DNA from: Streptomyces sp. NBC_01460
GTDB taxonomy: Bacteria > Actinomycetota > Actinomycetes > Streptomycetales > Streptomycetaceae
NCBI RefSeq assembly: GCF_036227405.1
Contig: NZ_CP109473.1
Coordinates: 1,178,001-1,242,000 of the forward strand
Length of the DNA stretch: 64,000 nt
Direction of reading: 5' to 3'
The translations under genes were made by a program, and so were the position numbers. Below, piece by piece: positions 29,633 through 41,336 of the stretch (position 1 is the first letter of the stretch; each line of letters begins with the position of its first letter). The notes beneath the pieces are model-generated. The model did no database searches. It saw only the letters and a program-made list of their open reading frames with translations, and was not told the origin of the DNA.

Positions 29633-31213
29633 CTACCAGCTGGTCTTGCGGTACAGCTCCCACATCTGCATGACCGTCTGCGGGTCGAGCGCGCGCTCGC
29701 CGCCGCCGATGTCCTCACCGGCCGCCACGTAGAGCTTGCCCTGCCACAGGGGCAGCAGCCGCACGTCCTTGACGAGGATCTCCTGGGCCCGCTTGAACTG
29801 ATCGGAGACGGCACCGCGGTCGCTCTCCTTGCGGGAGGACGGCAGCAGCTCCTGGGTGATCTCGTCGGTCAGGTAGGGGGTGCCGGTGACGCTCTCCTGG
29901 CCCACGAAGGGAGCGATGAAGTTGTCCGGGTCCGGGAAGTCGGGGAACCAGCCACGCCCGAAGACCGGGTACTCGCCCTGGGTGAAGCCCTCCTGGAAGG
30001 ACTTCCAGGGCGCGCTCTTGAGGGTGATCCGGAACAGGCCGGACGCCTCGAGCTGGCGCTTCAGCTCGGCGAACTCCGGAGCGGTGGAGGAGCCGTAGCG
30101 GTCCGTGGTGTACCAGAAGGTCATCTTGACGGGCGTGGTGATCCCCGCGTCGGAGAGGATCGCCCTCGCCTTGGCCGGATCGGGGTCGCCGAAGGAGTCG
30201 AAGAAGCTGGTGGTGTGGCCGGCGATGCCCTTCGGGACCATGGAGTAGAGCGGTTCGGCGGTGCCCCGGTAGACCTTGGCGACGAGCGCGTCACGGTCCA
30301 CCACCTGGGCGATGGCCTGCCGGACGGCGAGCTTCCCCGAGGCGGGGTCCTTGGGGTTGAAGACGAGGAAGCGGATGTCGGCGCCGACGGACTCGACGAT
30401 CTGCAGACCGTTGTTGTCCTTCTTGTTGTCCTCGAGACCGATGACCTCCTCGGCGGTCAGGCCTCGGTAGGTGGCGTCGATCTCCTTCTTCTTCAACGCC
30501 TCCACCATGGGGGCGGAGTCGTCGAAGTAGCGGATCGTGACCGCGGTGTTCTTCCGGTCCGCGAACCCCTTGTAGCCGGGGTTCTTCGTCAGTTCGGCCT
30601 GCTTGCCGGGCTCGTACGAGTCCAGGACGTACGGCCCCGAACCGGTGACCTTGCCGTCGTCCCGGATGCTGTCCGCCGGGTACTCACCGGGGGGAACGAT
30701 CGACATCGCGGGTGTGGCCAGGATGAACGGGAAGGTCGCGTCCGCCTTGGCGAGGTGGAAGATGACCGTGTCCTCGCCCTTGGTCTCCACCCGGTCGAGA
30801 GACCCGAGGAGGCCGGCCGGGCCGCCCTTGACCTTGATCTTCGAGATCCGGTCGATGGAGTACTTCACGGTCTCGGCGTCGATCTTCTCGCCGTTGGAGA
30901 ACTTCAGGCCGGATCGCAGGGTGCACCGGTAGGCCATGCTCGTGGCGTCGGTGAACCGGCATTCCTGCGCCGCGTCGGGCTCGGGGCTGGTGCTGCCGGT
31001 CGGGAAGCTCACCAGGGTCTGGAAGACGTTCCTCATCAGCTCCCACGAGCCGTCCCACGCCGCGGCCGGATCCAGGGTCGAGGGCGAGCTCGTCGTCCCG
31101 ACCGATATCCGCTGGTCCGTCTCCGAGCTGCTGTCGGACAACAGGCCGCAGCCGGTCAGCAGAGAAAGGGAAGCAAGGGCTGCAACTGTCTGCAGACTGG
31201 CCCGGTAGAACAC
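29633..31213 (-). CDS. ABC transporter substrate-binding lipoprotein (peptide/nickel type)
   Basis: A 526-residue extracytoplasmic solute-binding protein of family 5 (DppA/OppA type). A lipoprotein signal with lipobox LLTGC ends near residue 22. The family signature LRSGLKFSNGEKIDAETVKY (about residues 97-116) follows, and late AFEL-type segments include GRGWFPDFPDPDNFI. Of two close GTG codons the one at 31213 is better spaced from GAGGAGC. No permease or ATPase gene is next to it, so it is an orphan binding protein in this window. The ligand is probably an oligopeptide. Confidence 0.9.
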   Translation of the reverse strand: MFYRASLQTVAALASLSLLTGCGLLSDSSSETDQRISVGTTSSPSTLDPAAAWDGSWELMRNVFQTLVSFPTGSTSPEPDAAQECRFTDATSMAYRCTLRSGLKFSNGEKIDAETVKYSIDRISKIKVKGGPAGLLGSLDRVETKGEDTVIFHLAKADATFPFILATPAMSIVPPGEYPADSIRDDGKVTGSGPYVLDSYEPGKQAELTKNPGYKGFADRKNTAVTIRYFDDSAPMVEALKKKEIDATYRGLTAEEVIGLEDNKKDNNGLQIVESVGADIRFLVFNPKDPASGKLAVRQAIAQVVDRDALVAKVYRGTAEPLYSMVPKGIAGHTTSFFDSFGDPDPAKARAILSDAGITTPVKMTFWYTTDRYGSSTAPEFAELKRQLEASGLFRITLKSAPWKSFQEGFTQGEYPVFGRGWFPDFPDPDNFIAPFVGQESVTGTPYLTDEITQELLPSSRKESDRGAVSDQFKRAQEILVKDVRLLPLWQGKLYVAAGEDIGGGERALDPQTVMQMWELYRKTSW

Positions 31214-31259
31214 GTGCACGCTCCTCGATCAGCCTTGGGTCGGCAGACCATACCGCAGC

Positions 31260-33070: not shown

Positions 33071-33454
33071 TCAGCGCACCAGCAGGTCGAGCAGGCGCTC
33101 CACCTCGGCGGCCGGGTCCGTGGTCAGACCGCTGTGCACGACGCCCGGCTGGACGACCGTGGACCGCGGCGCGATCAGCCAGCGGAAGCGCCGGCCGGCG
33201 TCGTCACCGGCGGCCTGGCCCGCCGCCTCGCCGCCGCCGCAGACGCCCTCGACCGCCCGCAGCGCGGCCTGCACCCCGCGTACGTCGGCCTGCGGGTCCA
33301 GCGCCTTGAGCTTGCGCTCGTCCAGATGGGTGCGCGCCGCGACGAAGGACTTCGCCCGGCAGTAGACCAGTACACCCGCGTTGAAGCACTCACCGCGCTC
33401 GACGCGGGGGACGACGCGCAGGACCGCGTACTCGAAGACATCGCGCTTGCTCAT
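33071..33454 (-). CDS. DUF3037 protein
   Basis: A 127-residue protein of the DUF3037 family. The opening VFEYAVLRVVPRVERGECFN and the following AGVLVYCRAKSFVAART are the family signature; the middle is variable and the end reads LLDLLVR. The function is unknown. Its ATG overlaps the TGA of the HipA-like kinase gene by four bases (ATGA), so the two are translationally coupled. DUF3037 genes are repeatedly found next to HipA-like kinases, which suggests a functional pair. Confidence 0.88.
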   Translation of the reverse strand: MSKRDVFEYAVLRVVPRVERGECFNAGVLVYCRAKSFVAARTHLDERKLKALDPQADVRGVQAALRAVEGVCGGGEAAGQAAGDDAGRRFRWLIAPRSTVVQPGVVHSGLTTDPAAEVERLLDLLVR

Positions 33455-34335
33455 CGGCCACCGTCCTTGCTGTCCCGCCCGGCGCCGGCCTGCGCGTCGC
33501 GGTCCTTCTCCGTGGGGCGCGGCCGGGGGGCCAGGCGTTCGGTGAGCCATCCGGGGGCCTGGGAGGGCCGGGTCCTGGTGGGCCCGTCCATGACGATGCG
33601 CTCGTGGATGCTTCCGGCGCGCGCCAGCAGCGGCTCCACGTAGGCACGGCGCAACTGGTCCGTGGTCTCGAACCCCGGCTCGTCGGCCAGCCACGCGTCG
33701 GGCACCTCCGCCGTCACCTCGGTGAGCAGCTCTTCGGTGACCAGCGGGGCGAGTTCGGCGGCCGCGGCGGCGATGTCCGGCCCGAACGGTGCGAGGACGT
33801 GGTCGGAGGCGTTGTACGGCTTCGCCGCGGAGGCCTGCGCGCCCGGCCAGTTGTGGTGCCAGATCATGGTCGCCCCGTGGTCGATCAGCCAGGGGTCACC
33901 GTGCCAGACGAGCATGTTGGGGTTCCGCCACGAACGGTCCACGTTGTTGATCAGCGCGTCGAACCAGACGACCTTTCCGGCCTCCGCCGCGCCGACCTCG
34001 TACGCGAGCGGGTCGAATCCGAGCGAACCGGGAAGGTAGTCCATCCCGAGGTTCAGCCCCGCGCTGGCCTTGAGGAGTTCCTGCACCTCCTGGTCGGGCT
34101 CGGCGAGCCCGATGACGGGGTCGAGCTGGATGGTCACCAGCTCCGGCACCCGCAGCCCCAGCCTGCGGCCGAGCTCCCCGCAGATGACCTCCGCGACCAG
34201 GGTCTTGCGCCCCTGCCCGGCTCCGGTGAACTTCATGACATACGTGCCGAGGTCGTCGGCCTCGACGATCCCGGGGAGCGATCCGCCCTCACGCAAGGGC
34301 GTGACATAGCGAGTTGCGATTACTTCCGTCAGCAC
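33451..34335 (-). CDS. HipA-like kinase domain protein
   Basis: A 294-residue protein with a HipA-type kinase fold. KFTGAGQGRKTLVAEVICGE (about residues 35-54) fits the nucleotide-binding lysine and glycine region. FDALINNVDRSWRNPNML (about 125-142) fits the catalytic loop with Asp and Asn, and PWLIDHGATMIWHHNW gives the metal-binding aspartate (DHG in place of DFG/DFD). It is shorter than toxin HipA and lacks the N-terminal subdomain. It starts at GTG and is followed by DUF3037 with a four-base overlap. Whether it acts as a toxin or a metabolic kinase is unknown. Confidence 0.85.
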   Translation of the reverse strand: MLTEVIATRYVTPLREGGSLPGIVEADDLGTYVMKFTGAGQGRKTLVAEVICGELGRRLGLRVPELVTIQLDPVIGLAEPDQEVQELLKASAGLNLGMDYLPGSLGFDPLAYEVGAAEAGKVVWFDALINNVDRSWRNPNMLVWHGDPWLIDHGATMIWHHNWPGAQASAAKPYNASDHVLAPFGPDIAAAAAELAPLVTEELLTEVTAEVPDAWLADEPGFETTDQLRRAYVEPLLARAGSIHERIVMDGPTRTRPSQAPGWLTERLAPRPRPTEKDRDAQAGAGRDSKDGGR

Positions 34336-35352: not shown

Positions 35353-35376
35353 GGAACCAAGTTCCAATATATGGAA
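35353..35376. promoter_or_regulatory. Candidate IclR operator upstream of aroM
   Basis: Two overlapping dyads in an unusually AT-rich patch 21-44 bases before aroM: GGAAC-CAA-GTTCC (35353-35365) and TTCCA-ATATA-TGGAA (35362-35376). The second resembles the dyad upstream of the OPT transporter gene, which is divergent from the iclR gene. Confidence 0.55.
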
Positions 35377-35396
35377 TCCTTTCGAGAGGAGGCGCC

Positions 35397-36077
35397 GTGC
35401 ACACCCTCACCTTCCTGACCATCGGTCAGTCCCCGCGTCCAGACCTGTCGGAAGCAATCCAGGCGCACCTGCCGGCGACAGCGCGCGTGCGGCACGCCGG
35501 CGTGCTCGACGGGCTGTCCCGCCGGGAGGCCGAGCTCCGTTTCGGGGCGGCAGAGGGACGCGCGACCCTTCTGAGCCGACTGGCCGACGGCACATCCGTG
35601 ACCCTGGACGCCGAGGCGGTCGGGGCCGGGATACAGCCCCTGGTCGATCAGGCGGAGGACGCGGGGGCCGATGTGGTGGTGCTCCTGTGCACCGGCGTGT
35701 TCCCCGGCCTGCGGGCCCGGCGGGCGCGGCTCGTCGAGCCGGACGCCCTGGTCACGGGATACGTCGGCACCGCACTGCGGGGCAGCCGCGTCGGGATCGT
35801 CGTACCGCTGCCGGAGCAGGTCGCCGAGGCTCGTGAGAAGTGGCGGGAGATCACCCCGGCCCCCCTGTTCACGACGGCGTCGCCCTACGCGGAGGACGAC
35901 CTGGCCCTGTGCGCGGCGGCTCGTACCCACCTCGAGGCCGGCGCGGACGCCCTGATGCTCGACTGCATGGGTTACGGGTCACGACACCGTCAGGTGCTGC
36001 GCGCGGCCGGGGTGACGGCGCCGGTCCTGACGCCCGGAGCGGTGGTGGGGGCCGTTCTCGGGCCTCTGCTGAGCTGA
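35397..36077 (+). CDS. aroM: AroM-family protein
   Basis: A 226-residue AroM-family protein. FLTIGQSPRPDLSEAIQ at the N-terminus is the family signature. Two cysteines, in VVVLLCTGVFPGL (about residue 100) and LMLDCMGYGSRH (about 188), sit where the Asp/Glu/hydantoin racemase superfamily keeps its catalytic pair; this positional match is my inference. In E. coli aroM is an orphan near aroL with no proven reaction. Here a GAGAGGAGG site precedes a GTG start and an AT-rich dyad overlaps the promoter. It converges on the iclR gene with seven bases between. Confidence 0.87.
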   Translation: MHTLTFLTIGQSPRPDLSEAIQAHLPATARVRHAGVLDGLSRREAELRFGAAEGRATLLSRLADGTSVTLDAEAVGAGIQPLVDQAEDAGADVVVLLCTGVFPGLRARRARLVEPDALVTGYVGTALRGSRVGIVVPLPEQVAEAREKWREITPAPLFTTASPYAEDDLALCAAARTHLEAGADALMLDCMGYGSRHRQVLRAAGVTAPVLTPGAVVGAVLGPLLS

Positions 36078-36084
36078 GAACGAC

Positions 36085-36867
36085 TCAGCGGCCGGCGCCC
36101 GGCTCGGCGTACCGCAGCCAGTACGGGTCGCCGATGCGTTTGCCCACACGCAGAGCGGCGTCCCGTACCGCCCGGCCGAAGCGGGCCGCGTTCCCGTCGT
36201 CGAGCTCGGGCGCGGGCAGGGCCACACCTATGCCGAAGATCTGTCCGGTGTCGCTGTCGAGTACGGCGGCGGAGACTCCGGCGACGTTCGGTACGTACTC
36301 GCCGCGCGAGGACTCCCAGCCGTCGGCACGGACCCGGGCCAGACACGCGGTCAGTTCACCCGGGGTCCGCGGCGCCGAGCCCGTGCTCTGTTCGAGGCGG
36401 GCGTCGACGAGCCGCAGGACCTGTGCGTCGTCGAGGCGGGCGAGCAGCGCCCGCCCCATGGAGCTGGCATAGGCCGGTGCCCGCGTGCCCGCCGGGGTGT
36501 ACGCCTGGAGGGCGCCGGTCGTGCCGAGCCGCATGTGGAGCACGAGCGACTCCGGCCCGTCGAGCACGTCCACGTATCCGGTGTACCCGATGTCGGCGAC
36601 CAGCCTGGCCAGCTCCTCCTCCAGGAGGGAGGCGGTGCTGCGCGAGGCGCGGAAGTGGTACGAGGCCTCCATGACGAGCACGCCGGGGCGGTAGGCGCGG
36701 CTCGTCGGATCGCGGTCGAGGAAGCCGTAGTCGGCCATCATGCTGAGCGTCCGGGACACGGAGCTCTTGGGCAGGTCCAGAGCCCCCGCGACGTCCGTCA
36801 CGGTCAGGTCGCGCTGCAGGCGCGCCATCAGCCGCAGGACATCGCGCGCGTTGGCGAGTGTGCTCAC
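36085..36867 (-). CDS. IclR-family transcriptional regulator
   Basis: A 260-residue IclR regulator. The winged helix (VLRLMARLQRDLTVTDVAGA, LPKSSVSRTLSMMADYGFL, residues about 9-52) is followed by the effector domain (LHMRLGTTGALQAYTPAG, ASSMGRALLARL, GVALPAPELD). GTG at 36867 starts the conserved region; a very long open frame continues upstream over the transporter but is a shadow. It lies between convergent aroM and the divergent OPT operon, the usual place for a local regulator, and two related dyads flank these targets. Confidence 0.92.
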   Translation of the reverse strand: MSTLANARDVLRLMARLQRDLTVTDVAGALDLPKSSVSRTLSMMADYGFLDRDPTSRAYRPGVLVMEASYHFRASRSTASLLEEELARLVADIGYTGYVDVLDGPESLVLHMRLGTTGALQAYTPAGTRAPAYASSMGRALLARLDDAQVLRLVDARLEQSTGSAPRTPGELTACLARVRADGWESSRGEYVPNVAGVSAAVLDSDTGQIFGIGVALPAPELDDGNAARFGRAVRDAALRVGKRIGDPYWLRYAEPGAGR

Positions 36868-37051
36868 CGTTCCCCCGTCTCCCGGAGCTCCCCCGAGTCG
36901 TGTCGTCCGATCGTAAAGGGCACCCGGGCGTGCTCCTGACCGCCCCTCGTCCGTGGCTCCGGACCGCCCACATTCCGAGAATCCCGGCTCAGCCCTTGAC
37001 GGCGGAATGAGCCGTATGGATGATCCAAGGAGATCCAGATATTCAGATGCT

Positions 37052-37068
37052 GTTCCATATTTTAGAAC
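37052..37068. promoter_or_regulatory. Candidate IclR operator upstream of the OPT operon
   Basis: An imperfect dyad GTTCCATATTTTAGAAC in an AT-rich patch between the iclR gene and the transporter gene. It shares its first six bases and its right-hand GAA with the dyad before aroM, and it is placed to control both the regulator and the transporter. Confidence 0.5.
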
Positions 37069-37119
37069 TTTCCCAGGCGACTGACAAGGCGCCCACCCGC
37101 ACGGGAGCACCGAAGACCC

Positions 37120-38751
37120 ATGAGCACTGACGCCTCGCCCCAGGCAGAGACCTCGCACCCCGCGAGTGAGGTCCGACGCCATCCCCGCGCCCTCGCCCCC
37201 GGCAATCTGATCCTCACCGTGGTGCTCAGCGTGTTCGGCGCGATCGTGGGCGTACAGCTGCTCGCCACGCTCGGCGTCACCCCGAGCACCTCGCTGATCG
37301 GCGCGCTGGCCGCGATGACGCTGGCCCGCGTACCGCTCGTCATGTTCCGCGGCTTCCGTTCGGTGCACGCCCAGAACCTCGCGCAGACCAGCATCTCCTC
37401 GGCCACGTTCGGCGCCGCGAACAGCCTGTTCCTGCCGATCGGCATCCCGTTCCTGTTCGGGATGGACGACATGATCATCCCGATGCTGATCGGGGTCTCC
37501 GCCGCGATGCTGGTCGATGCCTGTCTGCTCTACCGGATGTACGACACCCCGGCCTTCCCCGCGAAGAACCCCTGGCCGCCCGGGCTCGCCGCCGCCCAGG
37601 CCATCAAGGCCGGCGACGAGGGCGGCCGCCGCGCCAAGGTGCTCGGCCTGGGCCTGCTGACCGGTCTGGTCGGCGCCGCGTTCACGCTGCCGATGTCGGC
37701 GTTCGGCGTGGCCCTGATCGGCGGGTTCGGCGCCATGGCAGCCTTCGGTGCCGGCCTGCTGTTCAACCAGTACGCCGACCCGCTGTTCGGCCTCGACCTG
37801 AACGGGATGTACCTGCCCCACGGCATGATGATGGGGGCGGGCCTGGTCGCCCTGATCCAGGTGGGCCGCACCGTCGTCAAGGTCCGGCGCAACCCGGCGG
37901 ACGACACCCCCGCGACCGGCGCGGCCGGCGCGCAGGAAGGCGCCAGGCGTCTGGGGCGCTCCATGCGGCTGGGCTTCGGCGCCTACCTCGTGATCTCGGT
38001 CCTGCTGGCGTTCGCCACCGGCGCCGCCACGCACATGAGCCCCGGCATGCTGATCGGCTTCCTGCTGTACGCCTCGGTCGCCGCGTTCCTGCACGAACTG
38101 CTCGTCGGCATCGCGTCGATGCACTCGGGCTGGTTCCCCGCCTTCGCGATCGCCCTGATCACGCTGCTGCTCGGCATCCTCATCGGCTTCCCGCCCGAGG
38201 CGCTCGTCGTGCTGTCCGGCTTCACCGCCGCGACCGGTCCGGCCTTCGCCGACATGGGGTACGACCTGAAGGCGGGCCATCTGCTGCGCGGCGAGAACGC
38301 CGACCCGGCCTTCGAGCTGGAGGGCCGCCGTCAGCAGCTGATCGCCGCGATGATCGGCTTCGGCGTCGCCATCGTCGTCGTGCTGGTCTCGTACCGGATG
38401 TTCTTCGACAACGGGCAGACCGCCCCGATCGACGCCGCATACGTCGCCGCGATCAAGGCGGGCCCGTCCGCGGAGACCGCCCGGGACCTCGCCCTGTGGG
38501 CGATCCCCGGCGCGATCGTGCAGCTGATCGGCGGCTCGAAGCGCCAGCTCGGCATCCTGCTGGCGACCGGGCTGCTGATCACCACACCGATGGCCGGCTG
38601 GATGGTCGCCGCAGGCATCGCCGTCCGCGTCCTCGCCCCGCGCGTCCTCGGCCCGAAGGCCAAGGACGACCTGGAGGTCTTCGCCGGCGGCGCGATCGCC
38701 GGTGACGCCCTCTACTCGTTCGGCAGCGGCGTGTTCAAGGCCGCCGAGTAG
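37120..38751 (+). CDS. OPT/YSL-family transporter
   Basis: A 543-residue integral membrane protein of the oligopeptide transporter (OPT) family, with some 13-15 hydrophobic segments. Typical features are ALAPGNLILTVVLSVFGAIV at the first helix, LGVTPSTSLIGALAAMTLAR, and the loop DLNGMYLPHGMMMGAGLVAL. OPT proteins import small peptides or metal chelates by proton symport. The ATG at 37120 begins a polar 25-residue tail before helix 1. It is the first gene of a transporter-DUF917-M20 run and diverges from iclR, so it likely imports the compound that the two enzymes degrade. Confidence 0.85.
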   Translation: MSTDASPQAETSHPASEVRRHPRALAPGNLILTVVLSVFGAIVGVQLLATLGVTPSTSLIGALAAMTLARVPLVMFRGFRSVHAQNLAQTSISSATFGAANSLFLPIGIPFLFGMDDMIIPMLIGVSAAMLVDACLLYRMYDTPAFPAKNPWPPGLAAAQAIKAGDEGGRRAKVLGLGLLTGLVGAAFTLPMSAFGVALIGGFGAMAAFGAGLLFNQYADPLFGLDLNGMYLPHGMMMGAGLVALIQVGRTVVKVRRNPADDTPATGAAGAQEGARRLGRSMRLGFGAYLVISVLLAFATGAATHMSPGMLIGFLLYASVAAFLHELLVGIASMHSGWFPAFAIALITLLLGILIGFPPEALVVLSGFTAATGPAFADMGYDLKAGHLLRGENADPAFELEGRRQQLIAAMIGFGVAIVVVLVSYRMFFDNGQTAPIDAAYVAAIKAGPSAETARDLALWAIPGAIVQLIGGSKRQLGILLATGLLITTPMAGWMVAAGIAVRVLAPRVLGPKAKDDLEVFAGGAIAGDALYSFGSGVFKAAE

Positions 38752-38815
38752 GCCACGCAGCCGGACCCTCCACCTCCTCTCGCACCTCTGTACAGAACCA
38801 CCCTGGGAGACCCCC

Positions 38816-39880
38816 GTGAAGCGACAGTTGACCCATGACGACATCCGCGCGGCCGTGTACGGCGGTGCCGTACTGGGCGGAGGCGGCGGCGGATTCGTCG
38901 AGCGAGGTCTGCGCACCGCCGAACTGGCCCTCCAGATCGGCATACCGGAGCTGTGGTCGGCCGACGAGTTCGCGGCCGACGACCTGACCGCGACGGTGGC
39001 CCTGGTCGGCGCCCCCGCGGCGCCTGACCCGCAGGTGCTGCCCACGCACCTGCTGCGCGCCTTGGAGCTGCTCCGCCGTGACCTGCCGCGCCCGCTCGTC
39101 GCGATCCACACGAACGAGAACGGCGCCGAGACCACCATCAACGGCTGGTTCCACTCCGCGATGACCGGCCTGCCCGTCATCGACCTGGCCTGCAACGGCC
39201 GCGCCCACCCCTCCAGCGTGATGGGCGCGATGGGCCTGCACCAGGAGGAGGGCTACCTCTCCTCCCAGGGCTACGCGGGCGGCAAGCCGTACGCGTACGT
39301 CGAGGGCTCGGTCTCCGGCCGTCTGGACGCCACGTCGAACATGGTCCGGCGCGCCTCCGTCGAGGCGGGCGGCTGGGTGGGCGTGGCCCGCAACCCCGTC
39401 GAGGTCGGCTACGCGGTGCGCAACGGCGCGCCGGGCGCGATCGGTTCCGCCATCGAGCTGGGCCGCCGCTTCCTGGCGGGCGGCGTGCGCGGCGCCGCCC
39501 AGCACCTCGGCGGTGAGATCGCCGTGACCGGCACGGTGGTGGAGTACCGCTGCGAGCAGCGCGAGGGCCTGGACGTCGGCGTCGCGGTCCTGGACGACGC
39601 GGCGCGCACCACCCTGTACATCGTCAACGAGTACATGGCGCTCGACATCGACGGTGTCCGCCGTGCCTCGTTCCCCGATCTGATCACGACGTTCGACGAG
39701 GACGGGCAGCCGCTCGCATCGGCGCACGTCGAGGTCGGCAAGCAGGTCAGCGTCCTGGTCGCCCCGGCCGAGAACCTCCTGCTCTCCCGGACGATGTACA
39801 TGCCCGACGTGTACGCGCCGGTGGAGGAGCTGCTCGGCATCGGGTTCGCCCCGGCCGCACGGGTCCTCGCCGATGCCTGA
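38816..39880 (+). CDS. DUF917 protein (S-methyl-thiohydantoin desulfurase-type family)
   Basis: A 354-residue DUF917 protein, without signal peptide. The glycine-rich opening YGGAVLGGGGGGFVERGL (about residues 14-31) and IHTNENGAETTINGWFHS and DLACNGRAHPSSVMGAMGL are family signatures. Members have been linked to desulfuration of thiohydantoin-like compounds; actual activity here is inferred from family naming. The GTG at 38816 follows TGGGAGA. The gene follows the OPT transporter by 64 bases and overlaps the M20 gene by eight bases, so all three form one operon. Confidence 0.85.
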   Translation: MKRQLTHDDIRAAVYGGAVLGGGGGGFVERGLRTAELALQIGIPELWSADEFAADDLTATVALVGAPAAPDPQVLPTHLLRALELLRRDLPRPLVAIHTNENGAETTINGWFHSAMTGLPVIDLACNGRAHPSSVMGAMGLHQEEGYLSSQGYAGGKPYAYVEGSVSGRLDATSNMVRRASVEAGGWVGVARNPVEVGYAVRNGAPGAIGSAIELGRRFLAGGVRGAAQHLGGEIAVTGTVVEYRCEQREGLDVGVAVLDDAARTTLYIVNEYMALDIDGVRRASFPDLITTFDEDGQPLASAHVEVGKQVSVLVAPAENLLLSRTMYMPDVYAPVEELLGIGFAPAARVLADA

Positions 39881-41336
39881 GCAGGCCCCGGCCGGTGTCG
39901 CCGGCGCCGGCCCCGTACGGGATTTCTGTGACGCCCAGTGGGAGACGGAGGTGCTCCCCCTCGTCCGGCAGCACATCCGCGTCCCGGCGGTCAGCCCCGC
40001 GTACGACCCCGACTGGGAGGCCCACGGCCACCTCGACCGGGCCGTCGACGCGGCGGCCGCGTGGCTGCGGAACGTGCCGCTGCCCGGCCTGCGGGTGGAG
40101 GTCCTGCGCGCGTCCGGACGCACGCCTCTGCTCTTCTTCGAGATCCCGGGTGAGGGCACGCACGCCGAGGAGGCTGTCCTCTTCTACGGGCACCTCGACA
40201 AGCAGCCCGAGGGCGACGGATGGACCGGGGGCCGCACCGCGTGGGAACCGGCCTTCGACGGCACCCGGCTGTACGGCCGCGGCGGTGCGGACGACGGGTA
40301 CGCACTGCCCGCGGCGGTGACCGCGGTGCGGGCGCTGGCCGAACAGGGCGCGGCCCGCCCTCGCTGCGTGGGCGTGTTCGAAGCAGGCGAGGAATCGGGC
40401 AGCCCCGACCTCGACCACTGGTTCGCGCGGCTCGCGCCGCGTATCGGCGGTGTGGCCCTTGTCGTCTGCCTGGACTCCGGCGCCGGCGACTACGAACGGC
40501 TGTGGCTGGTCACGTCGCTGCGAGGAGCCTGCGGCGGGACCCTCGACATACGCGTCCTCGGCGACGGCGCACACTCCGGGGACGCGGGCGGCGTGGTGCC
40601 GTCGTCGTTCCGGGTGCTGCGCCAGCTGCTGGACCGGCTGGAGGACGGCGCGACGGGGACACTGCGCCCTGAAGCGCTCCACTGCGCGATACCGGAGGAA
40701 CGCCTCACCCAGAACCGCGAGGCGGCGGCTCTCCTGGGCCACCAGGTCCGGGGCCGTTTCGACTGGCACGGCGACGCGACGCCCGTGACCGCCGACCCCG
40801 AGGAGCTGCTCCTCAACAGGGCATGGCGCCCCAGCCTCGAGATCACCGGGGCGGACGGCCTGCCGCCGACAGCCTCCGCGGGAAACGTGCTGCGCCCGTA
40901 CACCCGGGTCAAGGTCTCGCTGCGGCTTCCCCCGGCGGTGGACAGCGTGACGGCCCTCGCGGAGGTCCGTCGGCTCCTGGAGACGGACCCGCCGTACGGC
41001 ACGTCGATCCGGTTCACACCCGACCGGGTCCGCGCCGACGGCTGGCACGCGCCCGCCGAACAGCCGTGGCTCGAAGCGGCACTGTCCGCGGCGAGCCGGG
41101 CCTGCTTCGACGGAGCGGACGTGGCGCGAGTCGGGCAGGGCGGAACGATCCCCCTGATGGGGAACCTCGCCCGGCGGTTCCCGGAGGCCCAGTTCCTGGC
41201 CTGCGGAGTGCTCGGCCCGGGCGCGAACGCCCACGGCCCGAACGAATCCCTCCACGTCCCCTACGCGCGGCGCCTCACGGCAAGCCTGTCCCTGACCTTG
41301 AACGCGTGCGCGCTCCGGTCCCGGACGCCTGAGTAG
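39873..41336 (+). CDS. M20-family metallohydrolase
   Basis: A 487-residue M20 peptidase/deacylase-type hydrolase with two metals. The ligands are in LFYGHLDKQPEGDGW (His and Asp, about residues 107-121), YGRGGADDGYAL (bridging Asp), VFEAGEESGSPD (catalytic Glu pair) and the late AHGPNESLHVPY (His). The length fits the M20 dipeptidase group. Related M20 enzymes cleave dipeptides or N-carbamoyl and N-acyl amino acids. Its ATG lies inside the end of the DUF917 gene. It is the last gene of the predicted operon. Confidence 0.9.
   Translation: MPEQAPAGVAGAGPVRDFCDAQWETEVLPLVRQHIRVPAVSPAYDPDWEAHGHLDRAVDAAAAWLRNVPLPGLRVEVLRASGRTPLLFFEIPGEGTHAEEAVLFYGHLDKQPEGDGWTGGRTAWEPAFDGTRLYGRGGADDGYALPAAVTAVRALAEQGAARPRCVGVFEAGEESGSPDLDHWFARLAPRIGGVALVVCLDSGAGDYERLWLVTSLRGACGGTLDIRVLGDGAHSGDAGGVVPSSFRVLRQLLDRLEDGATGTLRPEALHCAIPEERLTQNREAAALLGHQVRGRFDWHGDATPVTADPEELLLNRAWRPSLEITGADGLPPTASAGNVLRPYTRVKVSLRLPPAVDSVTALAEVRRLLETDPPYGTSIRFTPDRVRADGWHAPAEQPWLEAALSAASRACFDGADVARVGQGGTIPLMGNLARRFPEAQFLACGVLGPGANAHGPNESLHVPYARRLTASLSLTLNACALRSRTPE

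What the first reader, a model, noticed from the sequence alone, without database searches (positions are those of the whole stretch)
35397..41336. Candidate cyclic-amide/(thio)hydantoin-type utilisation locus: aroM, iclR, OPT, DUF917, M20
Seen: aroM converges on an IclR gene, which diverges from an OPT transporter, a DUF917 protein and an M20 hydrolase that overlap or nearly abut. Known: OPT proteins import small peptides, DUF917 members have been connected to thiohydantoin desulfuration, and M20 enzymes include carbamoyl- and acyl-amino-acid hydrolases. Inferred: AroM has two cysteines placed like the catalytic pair of Asp/Glu/hydantoin racemases. Together these would give import, ring or sulfur chemistry, racemisation and hydrolysis of one compound class. 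I know of no described pathway with this exact set.
Basis: partly seen in the sequence, partly recalled or inferred. Interest (0 to 1): 0.72.

Follow-up and report, generated by a model that had tools for sequence, protein, structure and literature searches.

The report
IclR-controlled cyclic-dipeptide-like utilisation locus
A Streptomyces gene cluster, with relatives in very different bacteria and in a salt-loving archaeon, probably imports a small ring-closed peptide-like compound, flips its handedness, opens the ring and cuts it into amino acids, using enzyme families whose jobs are still unproven.

Summary
In 199 genomes of the genus, 11 of 11 full AroM genes lie next to, or one gene from, an OPT gene of this subfamily. 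Related sets with DUF917, DUF1177, racemases, hydantoinases and peptidases occur in Bacillota, Enterobacterales, Alphaproteobacteria and a haloarchaeon. A palindrome stands before both aroM and OPT (2 of 5 core matches in the 8.8-Mb genome), which probably puts aroM in the IclR regulon. AroM's Cys98/Cys190 align with the cysteine pair of hydantoin-type racemases; 23 of 23 stand-alone AroMs outside the aroL setting keep both, 3 of 3 AroM-LuxR fusions lost both, 3 of 3 aroL-linked ones lost the first. DUF917 misses both desulfurase cut-offs and has a Cys126 that desulfurase-type rows lack. M20 resembles dipeptidases. Best reading: uptake, epimerisation, ring opening and hydrolysis of a ring-closed dipeptide (diketopiperazine- or hydantoin-like); sulfur chemistry is unsupported. 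A 2024 paper already reports AroM, DUF917, hydantoin racemase and OPT enriched around cyclodipeptide oxidases. Pathway and substrate are not shown; both structure models were poor.

The parts
35361..35377 (.). Operator-like palindrome GTTCCAATATATGGAAT, 19 bp before the aroM start
   Evidence: two sites in the 64-kb window; shuffles average 0.17 matches; core matches at 5 places in the genome; within 2 mismatches before aroM in 3 of 5 other Streptomyces loci; only partial in L002 and L004
35397..36077 (+). aroM: PF07302, putative two-cysteine racemase/epimerase (Cys98, Cys190)
   Evidence: 197.5 bits; hhalign 93% to hydantoin-racemase-like proteins, cysteines aligned; pair kept in 23 of 23 stand-alone AroMs outside the aroL setting
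36085..36921 (-). iclR: IclR-family regulator (may start at 36867)
   Evidence: for the start
37052..37068 (.). Operator-like palindrome GTTCCATATTTTAGAAC, 51 bp before the OPT start
   Evidence: present before OPT in 10 of 10 distinct type-A loci with at most 1 mismatch
37120..38751 (+). OPT/YSL-type transporter (PF03169)
   Evidence: relatives at 49-56% identity in 8 plasmid records, 7 of them near AroM, DUF1177, DUF917 or HyuAB
38816..39880 (+). DUF917 (S-Me-THD-like) putative ring hydrolase with the E101/C126/N127/G128 signature
39873..41336 (+). M20 metallohydrolase resembling dipeptidases (CNDP-like)
   Evidence: no blastp match at E<=1 to four Zn-dependent hydrolases of other DUF917 loci

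Best explanation
The locus is an IclR-controlled uptake and breakdown unit for a small ring-closed, peptide-derived compound, most likely a cyclic dipeptide (2,5-diketopiperazine) or a close hydantoin-like analogue. OPT imports it; AroM, a two-cysteine racemase related to hydantoin racemases, epimerises an acidic ring C-alpha; the DUF917 protein hydrolyses the ring; the M20 dipeptidase-like enzyme releases amino acids. IclR binds the palindromes before aroM and OPT and so controls both transcripts together. Shown by sequence: gene set, order, recurrence, shared palindromes, cysteine conservation, subfamily placements. Inferred: IclR binding, every reaction, the order of steps and the substrate.
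For: Co-occurrence (window included): 11 of 11 full AroM loci in 199 genomes of the genus lie next to OPT or one gene away; 7 of 7 close DUF917 relatives lie beside OPT, truncated in one. Nine of nine opened plasmid AroM loci outside the aroL setting carry OPT, DUF917 or DUF1177, and 7 of 8 OPT plasmid loci carry AroM, DUF1177, DUF917 or HyuAB. Regulon: two palindromes, of five core matches genome-wide, conserved before OPT in 10 of 10 type-A loci. AroM: profile match to hydantoin-type racemases with both cysteines aligned; both Cys in 23 of 23 stand-alone AroMs outside the aroL setting, neither in 3 of 3 LuxR fusions. DUF917: C126 in 10 of 10 OPT/DUF1177-linked rows, 0 of 5 desulfurase-type, 0 of 8 HyuA-linked. 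Many attached hydrolases are peptidases: M20 CNDP-like, PepE, M29-like, M24 Xaa-Pro type. Cyclodipeptide link: published enrichment around cyclodipeptide oxidases and, here, one contig of the genus with the oxidase small subunit (PF19585) directly before a broken OPT of this subfamily.
Against: No enzyme here has been assayed. PF19585 is not found in this genome or in 24 other genomes or plasmid records with AroM or OPT loci (for plasmids the host chromosome was not searched); the model does find it in 4 of 199 genomes of the genus, and only 1 of those 6 places has OPT. AroM is missing in 3 of 7 genomes with the OPT-DUF917 pair and in 8 of 19 with OPT; M20 has no match in the fetched stretch of L071, L073 and L035, so neither is essential. 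One of 8 plasmid OPT loci (Variovorax) has none of the partners. HyuA or HyuAB in related loci fits hydantoin- or oxoproline-like rings as well as diketopiperazines, and an aspartoacylase-like and an ArgE-like gene also occur.
Confidence: 0.45

Rival explanations
1. Thiohydantoin/hydantoin utilisation: import of a (thio)hydantoin, desulfuration by DUF917, racemisation by AroM, hydrolysis of an N-carbamoyl amino acid by M20.
For: The DUF917 protein falls on the desulfurase-type side of the tree, not the HyuA-linked side, and keeps H131 as 5 of 5 desulfurase-type rows do; the racemase relatives include hydantoin racemases.
Against: 256 and 226 bits against cut-offs of 440 and 450; the C126/E101 pair is absent from desulfurase-type rows; none of the five genes is one of the amidohydrolase, urocanase-like, ammonia-lyase or Zn-dependent hydrolase genes seen around such DUF917 genes (87 has only the amidohydrolase and Zn hydrolase); M20 resembles dipeptidases.
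Confidence: 0.15
2. Plain salvage of linear or modified dipeptides, for example ones holding D- or iso-residues: OPT imports dipeptides, AroM racemises an amino acid or dipeptide residue, M20 cleaves, DUF917 repairs a side product such as a cyclised imide.
For: OPT is an oligopeptide transporter family by name; peptidases recur; the own genome has a second IclR-OPT locus with an M29-like gene and neither AroM nor DUF917 within the fetched 17.5 kb.
Against: All 7 OPT genes of the window's type in 199 genomes have DUF917 beside them, and other ring-opening families (HyuA, HyuAB) recur in related loci, which a linear peptide would not need.
Confidence: 0.25
3. A compound class outside these, such as a metal-chelating peptide taken up by a YSL-like OPT member, or a specialised secondary metabolite.
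For: OPT/YSL transporters include metal-chelate importers (recalled, no call); the cluster is patchy in the genus (OPT in 19 of 199), as for specialised traits.
Against: None of the five cluster genes is a known metal-handling family.
Confidence: 0.15

Closest known systems
Cyclodipeptide-oxidase gene neighbourhoods without a cyclodipeptide synthase (PMC11055893; section 6 and found passages read)
   Same: Enriched in AroM, DUF917, hydantoin racemase, OPT or dipeptide ABC transporters and peptidases
   Different: PF19585 not found in this genome; in the parts I read the paper suggests purine metabolism or peptide metabolites and does not describe an IclR regulon, DUF1177, the cysteine pattern or LuxR fusions
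Loci with named thiohydantoin or S-methyl thiohydantoin desulfurases (ergothioneine-type by their genes; that label is mine)
   Same: A DUF917-family enzyme; an IclR gene nearby in 3 of 4 opened (L033, L149, L150)
   Different: They carry urocanase-like, ammonia-lyase, amidohydrolase and Zn-dependent hydrolase genes in varying number; this one has OPT, AroM and a dipeptidase-like M20, and its DUF917 falls below both cut-offs
Hydantoin/allantoin racemases (2eq5, 3qvj, 5lfd)
   Same: Profile similarity, weak model matches and two aligned cysteines
   Different: AroM is a separate Pfam family with its own N-terminal GQxPR motif; its activity is untested
E. coli-type AroM (aroL-yaiA-aroM)
   Same: Same Pfam family
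   Different: The first cysteine and the GQxPR motif are gone in 3 of 3 aroL-linked enterobacterial AroMs, so the E. coli gene is a poor guide to function here

Membership tests
Asp/Glu/hydantoin racemase superfamily (AroM protein) | Profile-level homology to a member | tested here: met
   hhalign of AroM alignment A1 against cluster racemases A2: 93% probability, E 3.5e-7; A2 matches the PDB hydantoin racemase 2eq5 at 1.2e-78; A1 itself matches it only at 0.0048
Asp/Glu/hydantoin racemase superfamily (AroM protein) | Direct match to Pfam PF01177 | tested here: not met
   Only PF07302 at E<=1e-3; so it is filed as AroM, not as PF01177
Asp/Glu/hydantoin racemase superfamily (AroM protein) | Two cysteines at the equivalent positions | tested here: met
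   Cys98/Cys190 align with the invariant Cys75/Cys173 of the cluster racemases; kept in 23 of 23 stand-alone AroMs outside the aroL setting. That this pair is catalytic in the superfamily is recalled
Asp/Glu/hydantoin racemase superfamily (AroM protein) | Cysteines facing each other across the cleft | tested here: inconclusive
Asp/Glu/hydantoin racemase superfamily (AroM protein) | Racemase activity | not testable with these tools
   needs an assay
Thiohydantoin desulfurase NF058529 | Score over the curated cut-off (440 bits) | tested here: not met
   256.3 bits; a Burkholderia relative (L032) scores 608
S-methyl thiohydantoin desulfurase NF058532 | Score over the curated cut-off (450 bits) | tested here: not met
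   225.8 bits; the Lichenihabitans protein (L033) scores 556
Ergothioneine-type breakdown locus | Urocanase-like, ammonia-lyase, amidohydrolase and Zn-dependent hydrolase genes beside DUF917 | tested here: not met
   None among the five cluster genes; present around L033 and L149 and in part around L150. The rest of the window was not scanned for them
DUF917 / S-Me-THD-like (PF06032, PF20906) | Both Pfam domains over cut-off | tested here: met
   60.2 and 77.8 bits, cut-off 27 each
OPT transporter PF03169 | Score over cut-off | tested here: met
   79.6 bits, cut-off 25.8
M20 dipeptidase (CNDP-like) | Nearest named relatives are dipeptidases, not N-carbamoyl hydrolases | tested here: inconclusive
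   The best PDB match by far is 3pfe, named succinyl-diaminopimelate desuccinylase by its depositors; carnosinase, DUG1 and CNDP dipeptidases follow. No NCBIfam cut-off was reached. No blastp match at E<=1 to four Zn-dependent hydrolases of other DUF917 loci
Cyclodipeptide-oxidase cluster | CDOB gene (PF19585) present | tested here: not met
   No match in the own genome; the same model finds 6 places in 4 of 199 genomes of the genus

The most novel reading that the evidence does not exclude
A widespread, undescribed diketopiperazine (cyclic dipeptide) utilisation pathway: AroM is a cyclic-dipeptide epimerase, the C126-type DUF917 protein is a cysteine-dependent ring-opening hydrolase, and in Alphaproteobacteria a catalytically dead AroM fused to a LuxR DNA-binding domain has become the sensor of the same substrate.
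Probability: 0.22. Interest if true: 0.8.

Novelty: new variant of a known kind. Interest (0 to 1): 0.6.

Why it matters
Three enzyme families with no settled role (AroM, DUF917 of this subtype, DUF1177) would get one shared context, a regulator with a predicted operator, and a short list of substrates to test. AroM is named after an E. coli gene whose own protein lacks the first cysteine; the informative members are these cluster-linked ones. If cyclic dipeptides are the substrate, this would give genes for the breakdown of a compound class that I know mainly from its biosynthesis (recalled).

Tried and rejected
The DUF917 model was not searched. The AroM fold matches are weak support only: Foldseek TM-scores are below 0.52 for the racemases, and in VIA-align ranks 1 to 9 lie within 1 Z, a LacI-type regulator among them.

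The search for related loci with AroM gave 3 Streptomyces loci; with the AroM alignment in viral contigs it gave none. Phage records hold no OPT relative. DUF1177 has no convincing PDB relative by sequence (one at E 0.5), and OPT none at E<=1.

Considered and not pursued for lack of any test: methylglyoxal-arginine hydroimidazolone peptides as substrate (DUF917 acting on the ring C2 to give ornithine and methylhydantoin). It fits the gene list but nothing singles it out.

Rows dropped or not opened: G558 (45-residue marginal AroM hit) left out of the AroM count; L046 is the same contig as L003 and was counted once; two further Ketogulonicigenium AroM records and 6 of 9 E. coli-like AroM records not opened; 25 of the 36 DUF917 plasmid records not opened as DUF917 hits beyond L032, L033, L148-L150 and those already seen through AroM; OPT places in G451, G535, G461 (second), G557 (second), G503 (second) and G629 not opened.

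Literature: paper searches and reading one search failed or timed out; some searches worked. Statements about what is in print rest on those six only, in an open-licence library. For PMC11055893 I read section 6 and passages; for PMC9503626, PMC12915319 and PMC7513527 only the passages naming DUF917 (a mutation table, an expression table, a gene list). All other papers were seen as listings only.
Full report
What is there. The window lies in an 8.8-Mb genome (G000:C1:1178001-1242000); its nearest named relatives are Streptomyces. Between 35397 and 41336 there are aroM (+), iclR (-, converging on aroM and diverging from the next), an OPT transporter gene (+), a DUF917 gene (+) and an M20 gene (+). 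DUF917 probably begins at 38816; OPT-DUF917-M20 look like one transcript (64-bp gap, then an 8-bp overlap).

Regulation. Two palindromes of one form, GTTCCANNNNNTRGAAY, stand 19 bp before aroM (35361-35377) and 51 bp before OPT (37052-37068); they are the only two sites in the window (up to 1 mismatch: 4 hits counting both strands; shuffles average 0.17). The core TTCCANNNNNTRGAA occurs at 5 places in the whole genome, two of them these (the reversed control pattern gave 2 hits on each strand, so the other three places may be chance). Before OPT the site is present with at most one mismatch in 10 of 10 distinct loci of this type (window, L002, L003, L004, L035, L044, L045, L071, L072, L073). 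Before aroM it is present within 2 mismatches in 4 of 7 loci that have aroM (window, L003, L044, L045); L002 and L004 have only partial sites and L035 none. In two genomes that lack aroM (L071, L072) a copy with 2 mismatches lies beyond the conserved 3' end of iclR, as if left from a lost aroM promoter; this is weak, since in L071 the iclR frame runs on through it and in L072 it overlaps the end of the convergent gene. IclR binding is inferred.

Does the set recur? In 199 genomes of the genus AroM was found in 12; one (G558) is a 45-residue marginal hit and was dropped. All 11 others, the window included, have an OPT gene of this subfamily next to AroM or one gene away: 4 in the window's arrangement (AroM, IclR, OPT, DUF917, M20) and 7 in a second one. 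Of these 7, 6 show PepE, IclR, DUF1177, OPT and AroM, 4 show a racemase relative, and the contig of G507 ends early and shows only OPT and AroM. OPT occurs in 19 of 199, so 8 OPT genomes lack AroM. DUF917 relatives occur in 17 of 199; the 7 close ones (83% identity or more) all sit beside OPT, truncated in one (L073), and 3 of those 7 have no AroM. Of the other 10, the two I opened (G471, G451) sit beside HyuA. In 396 genomes across the phylum AroM matches in 6, over the cut-off in 5; one of the 5 (G142) is a racemase relative. Of the 5, one in another family (L035) has AroM, IclR, OPT and DUF917 at 51-70% identity, without M20; another (L034) has AroM beside DUF1177, no OPT in 18 kb, and genes that by eye are peptide-ABC components; a third (G212) lies on a 3.3-kb contig with ArgE-like and aminopeptidase-like genes.

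Beyond actinobacteria (plasmid records). AroM is in 20 records. Nine are enterobacterial records of the E. coli-like kind; I opened 3 and all three are aroL-yaiA-aroM. Of the other 11 I opened 9 (two further Ketogulonicigenium records were not opened); 9 of 9 carry OPT, DUF917 or DUF1177 close by: Klebsiella and Sodalis IclR-OPT-DUF1177-AroM-PepE-racemase; Niallia racemase-OPT-DUF917-DUF1177-AroM-M29-like aminopeptidase; the haloarchaeon Salinigranum DUF917-DUF1177-AroM-aminopeptidase-racemase-aspartoacylase; Paenibacillus peptide ABC, ArgE-like, DUF1177, AroM; four Alphaproteobacteria with DUF917-HyuA and AroM (in two of these, L030 and L031, the AroM is only the LuxR-fused kind). All 8 OPT records were opened: 7 sit with AroM, DUF1177, DUF917 or HyuAB (two of the 7 are one Planococcus species); the Variovorax one does not. 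All 7 DUF1177 records are among these loci. So the association spans two domains of life.

AroM. Its alignment matches that of the cluster racemases at 93% probability, with Cys98 and Cys190 opposite the invariant Cys75 and Cys173; those racemases match the Pyrococcus hydantoin racemase 2eq5 at 1.2e-78, AroM itself matches it at only 0.0048. In 29 AroM proteins: 23 of 23 stand-alone ones outside the aroL setting keep both cysteines (one, L036, is a fragment on a short contig); 3 of 3 fused to a LuxR-type DNA-binding domain (L028, L030, L031; domain shown by Pfam for L031, by alignment for the other two) have lost both but keep the GQxPR motif; 3 of 3 aroL-linked enterobacterial ones have lost the first cysteine and the motif. 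This is what one expects if both cysteines are catalytic and the fused forms are sensors of a related ligand; many of the 23 are close relatives. The AlphaFold model is too poor to test geometry; weak structural matches are mostly to the racemase superfamily.

DUF917. It is below the cut-offs of both named desulfurases, as are those of L023 and L035, whereas L032 and L033 each pass one. In a tree of 23 rows the 8 HyuA-linked rows are cut off by a 100/100 branch from the 5 desulfurase-type and 10 OPT/DUF1177-linked rows; the program warns of long branches there. The eight actinobacterial OPT-linked rows are one 100/100 group; whether all ten are one clade is not resolved. E101, C126, N127 and G128 together occur in 10 of 10 OPT/DUF1177-linked rows, including the distant haloarchaeal and Niallia ones. 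C126 is in 0 of 5 desulfurase-type and 0 of 8 HyuA-linked rows; H131 is shared with 5 of 5 desulfurase-type rows; E101 with 8 of 8 HyuA-linked rows. The group labels are mine, from neighbouring genes; only L032 and L033 of the five were tested as desulfurases. I read this as a subtype with its own chemistry; a catalytic role of C126 is inference.

M20. It is closest to 3pfe, named succinyl-diaminopimelate desuccinylase by its depositors, then to carnosinase, DUG1 and CNDP dipeptidases. It has no blastp match at E<=1 to four Zn-dependent hydrolases of other DUF917 loci, which I take for carbamoylase-type (label recalled, not tested). The hydrolases that accompany the set vary between lineages (M20, PepE, M29-like, M24 Xaa-Pro type, ArgE-like, aspartoacylase-like); several are peptidase families, which favours a dipeptide as the last intermediate over an N-carbamoyl amino acid.

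Substrate. PMC11055893 (section 6 read) reports that cyclodipeptide-oxidase clusters without a cyclodipeptide synthase are enriched in hydantoin racemases, DUF917, AroM, OPT and peptidases, and calls AroM and DUF917 uncharacterised. Here one of six PF19585 places in the genus (G506, L158) has the small subunit next to an OPT of this subfamily that is broken into pieces; the larger-subunit-like fragment upstream was recognised by eye only. Against this, PF19585 was not found in the window's genome or in 24 other genomes or plasmid records with AroM or OPT loci. I therefore commit to ring-closed dipeptides as the class, at moderate confidence, with hydantoin-like rings next.

Limits. No assay, no expression data, no deep homologue search (switched off), patchy literature access, and related genomes counted as if independent in the hypergeometric figure.

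Noticed in passing
L031:7965-8915, L030:7974-8888, L028:6919-7809: AroM domains fused to a LuxR-type DNA-binding domain, with both cysteines lost: apparently an enzyme turned into a transcriptional sensor beside DUF917-HyuA genes.
   Followed up: yes
L135:7024-10676 (G000:C1 about 1504000-1507700, outside the window): The same genome has a second IclR-OPT pair of this subfamily (47% identity) followed by an M29-like aminopeptidase gene; L136, L138 and L139 show the same trio.
   Followed up: partly
L071:2308-2324, L072:4531-4547: Operator-like sites (2 mismatches) beyond the conserved 3' end of iclR in two genomes without aroM, possibly relics of a lost aroM promoter.
   Followed up: partly
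L158:8216-10623: A cyclodipeptide-oxidase small-subunit gene (PF19585), with a larger-subunit-like fragment, directly before a broken OPT gene of this subfamily in one contig of the genus.
   Followed up: partly
L103:1-12581: A Planococcus plasmid locus holds DUF917, cytosine permease, DUF1177, Xaa-Pro peptidase, aminotransferase, HyuA-HyuB, IclR and OPT.
   Followed up: no
alignment A6: DUF1177 is strongly conserved (53-90% identity to the Klebsiella protein in 7 relatives, a haloarchaeon included) with several invariant Asp and His residues, but no convincing PDB relative by sequence; a metal-enzyme role looks possible.
   Followed up: partly
L045:3830-5244: The M20 gene in genome G547 matches in two overlapping pieces in different frames.
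   Followed up: no
L073:6281-7001: In genome G552 only the last third of the OPT gene remains beside the operator and DUF917.
   Followed up: no
window 29633-31219 and 33451-34335: Upstream of the cluster lie a family-5 solute-binding protein gene and a HipA-like kinase gene, both on the minus strand; no link to the cluster was tested.
   Followed up: no
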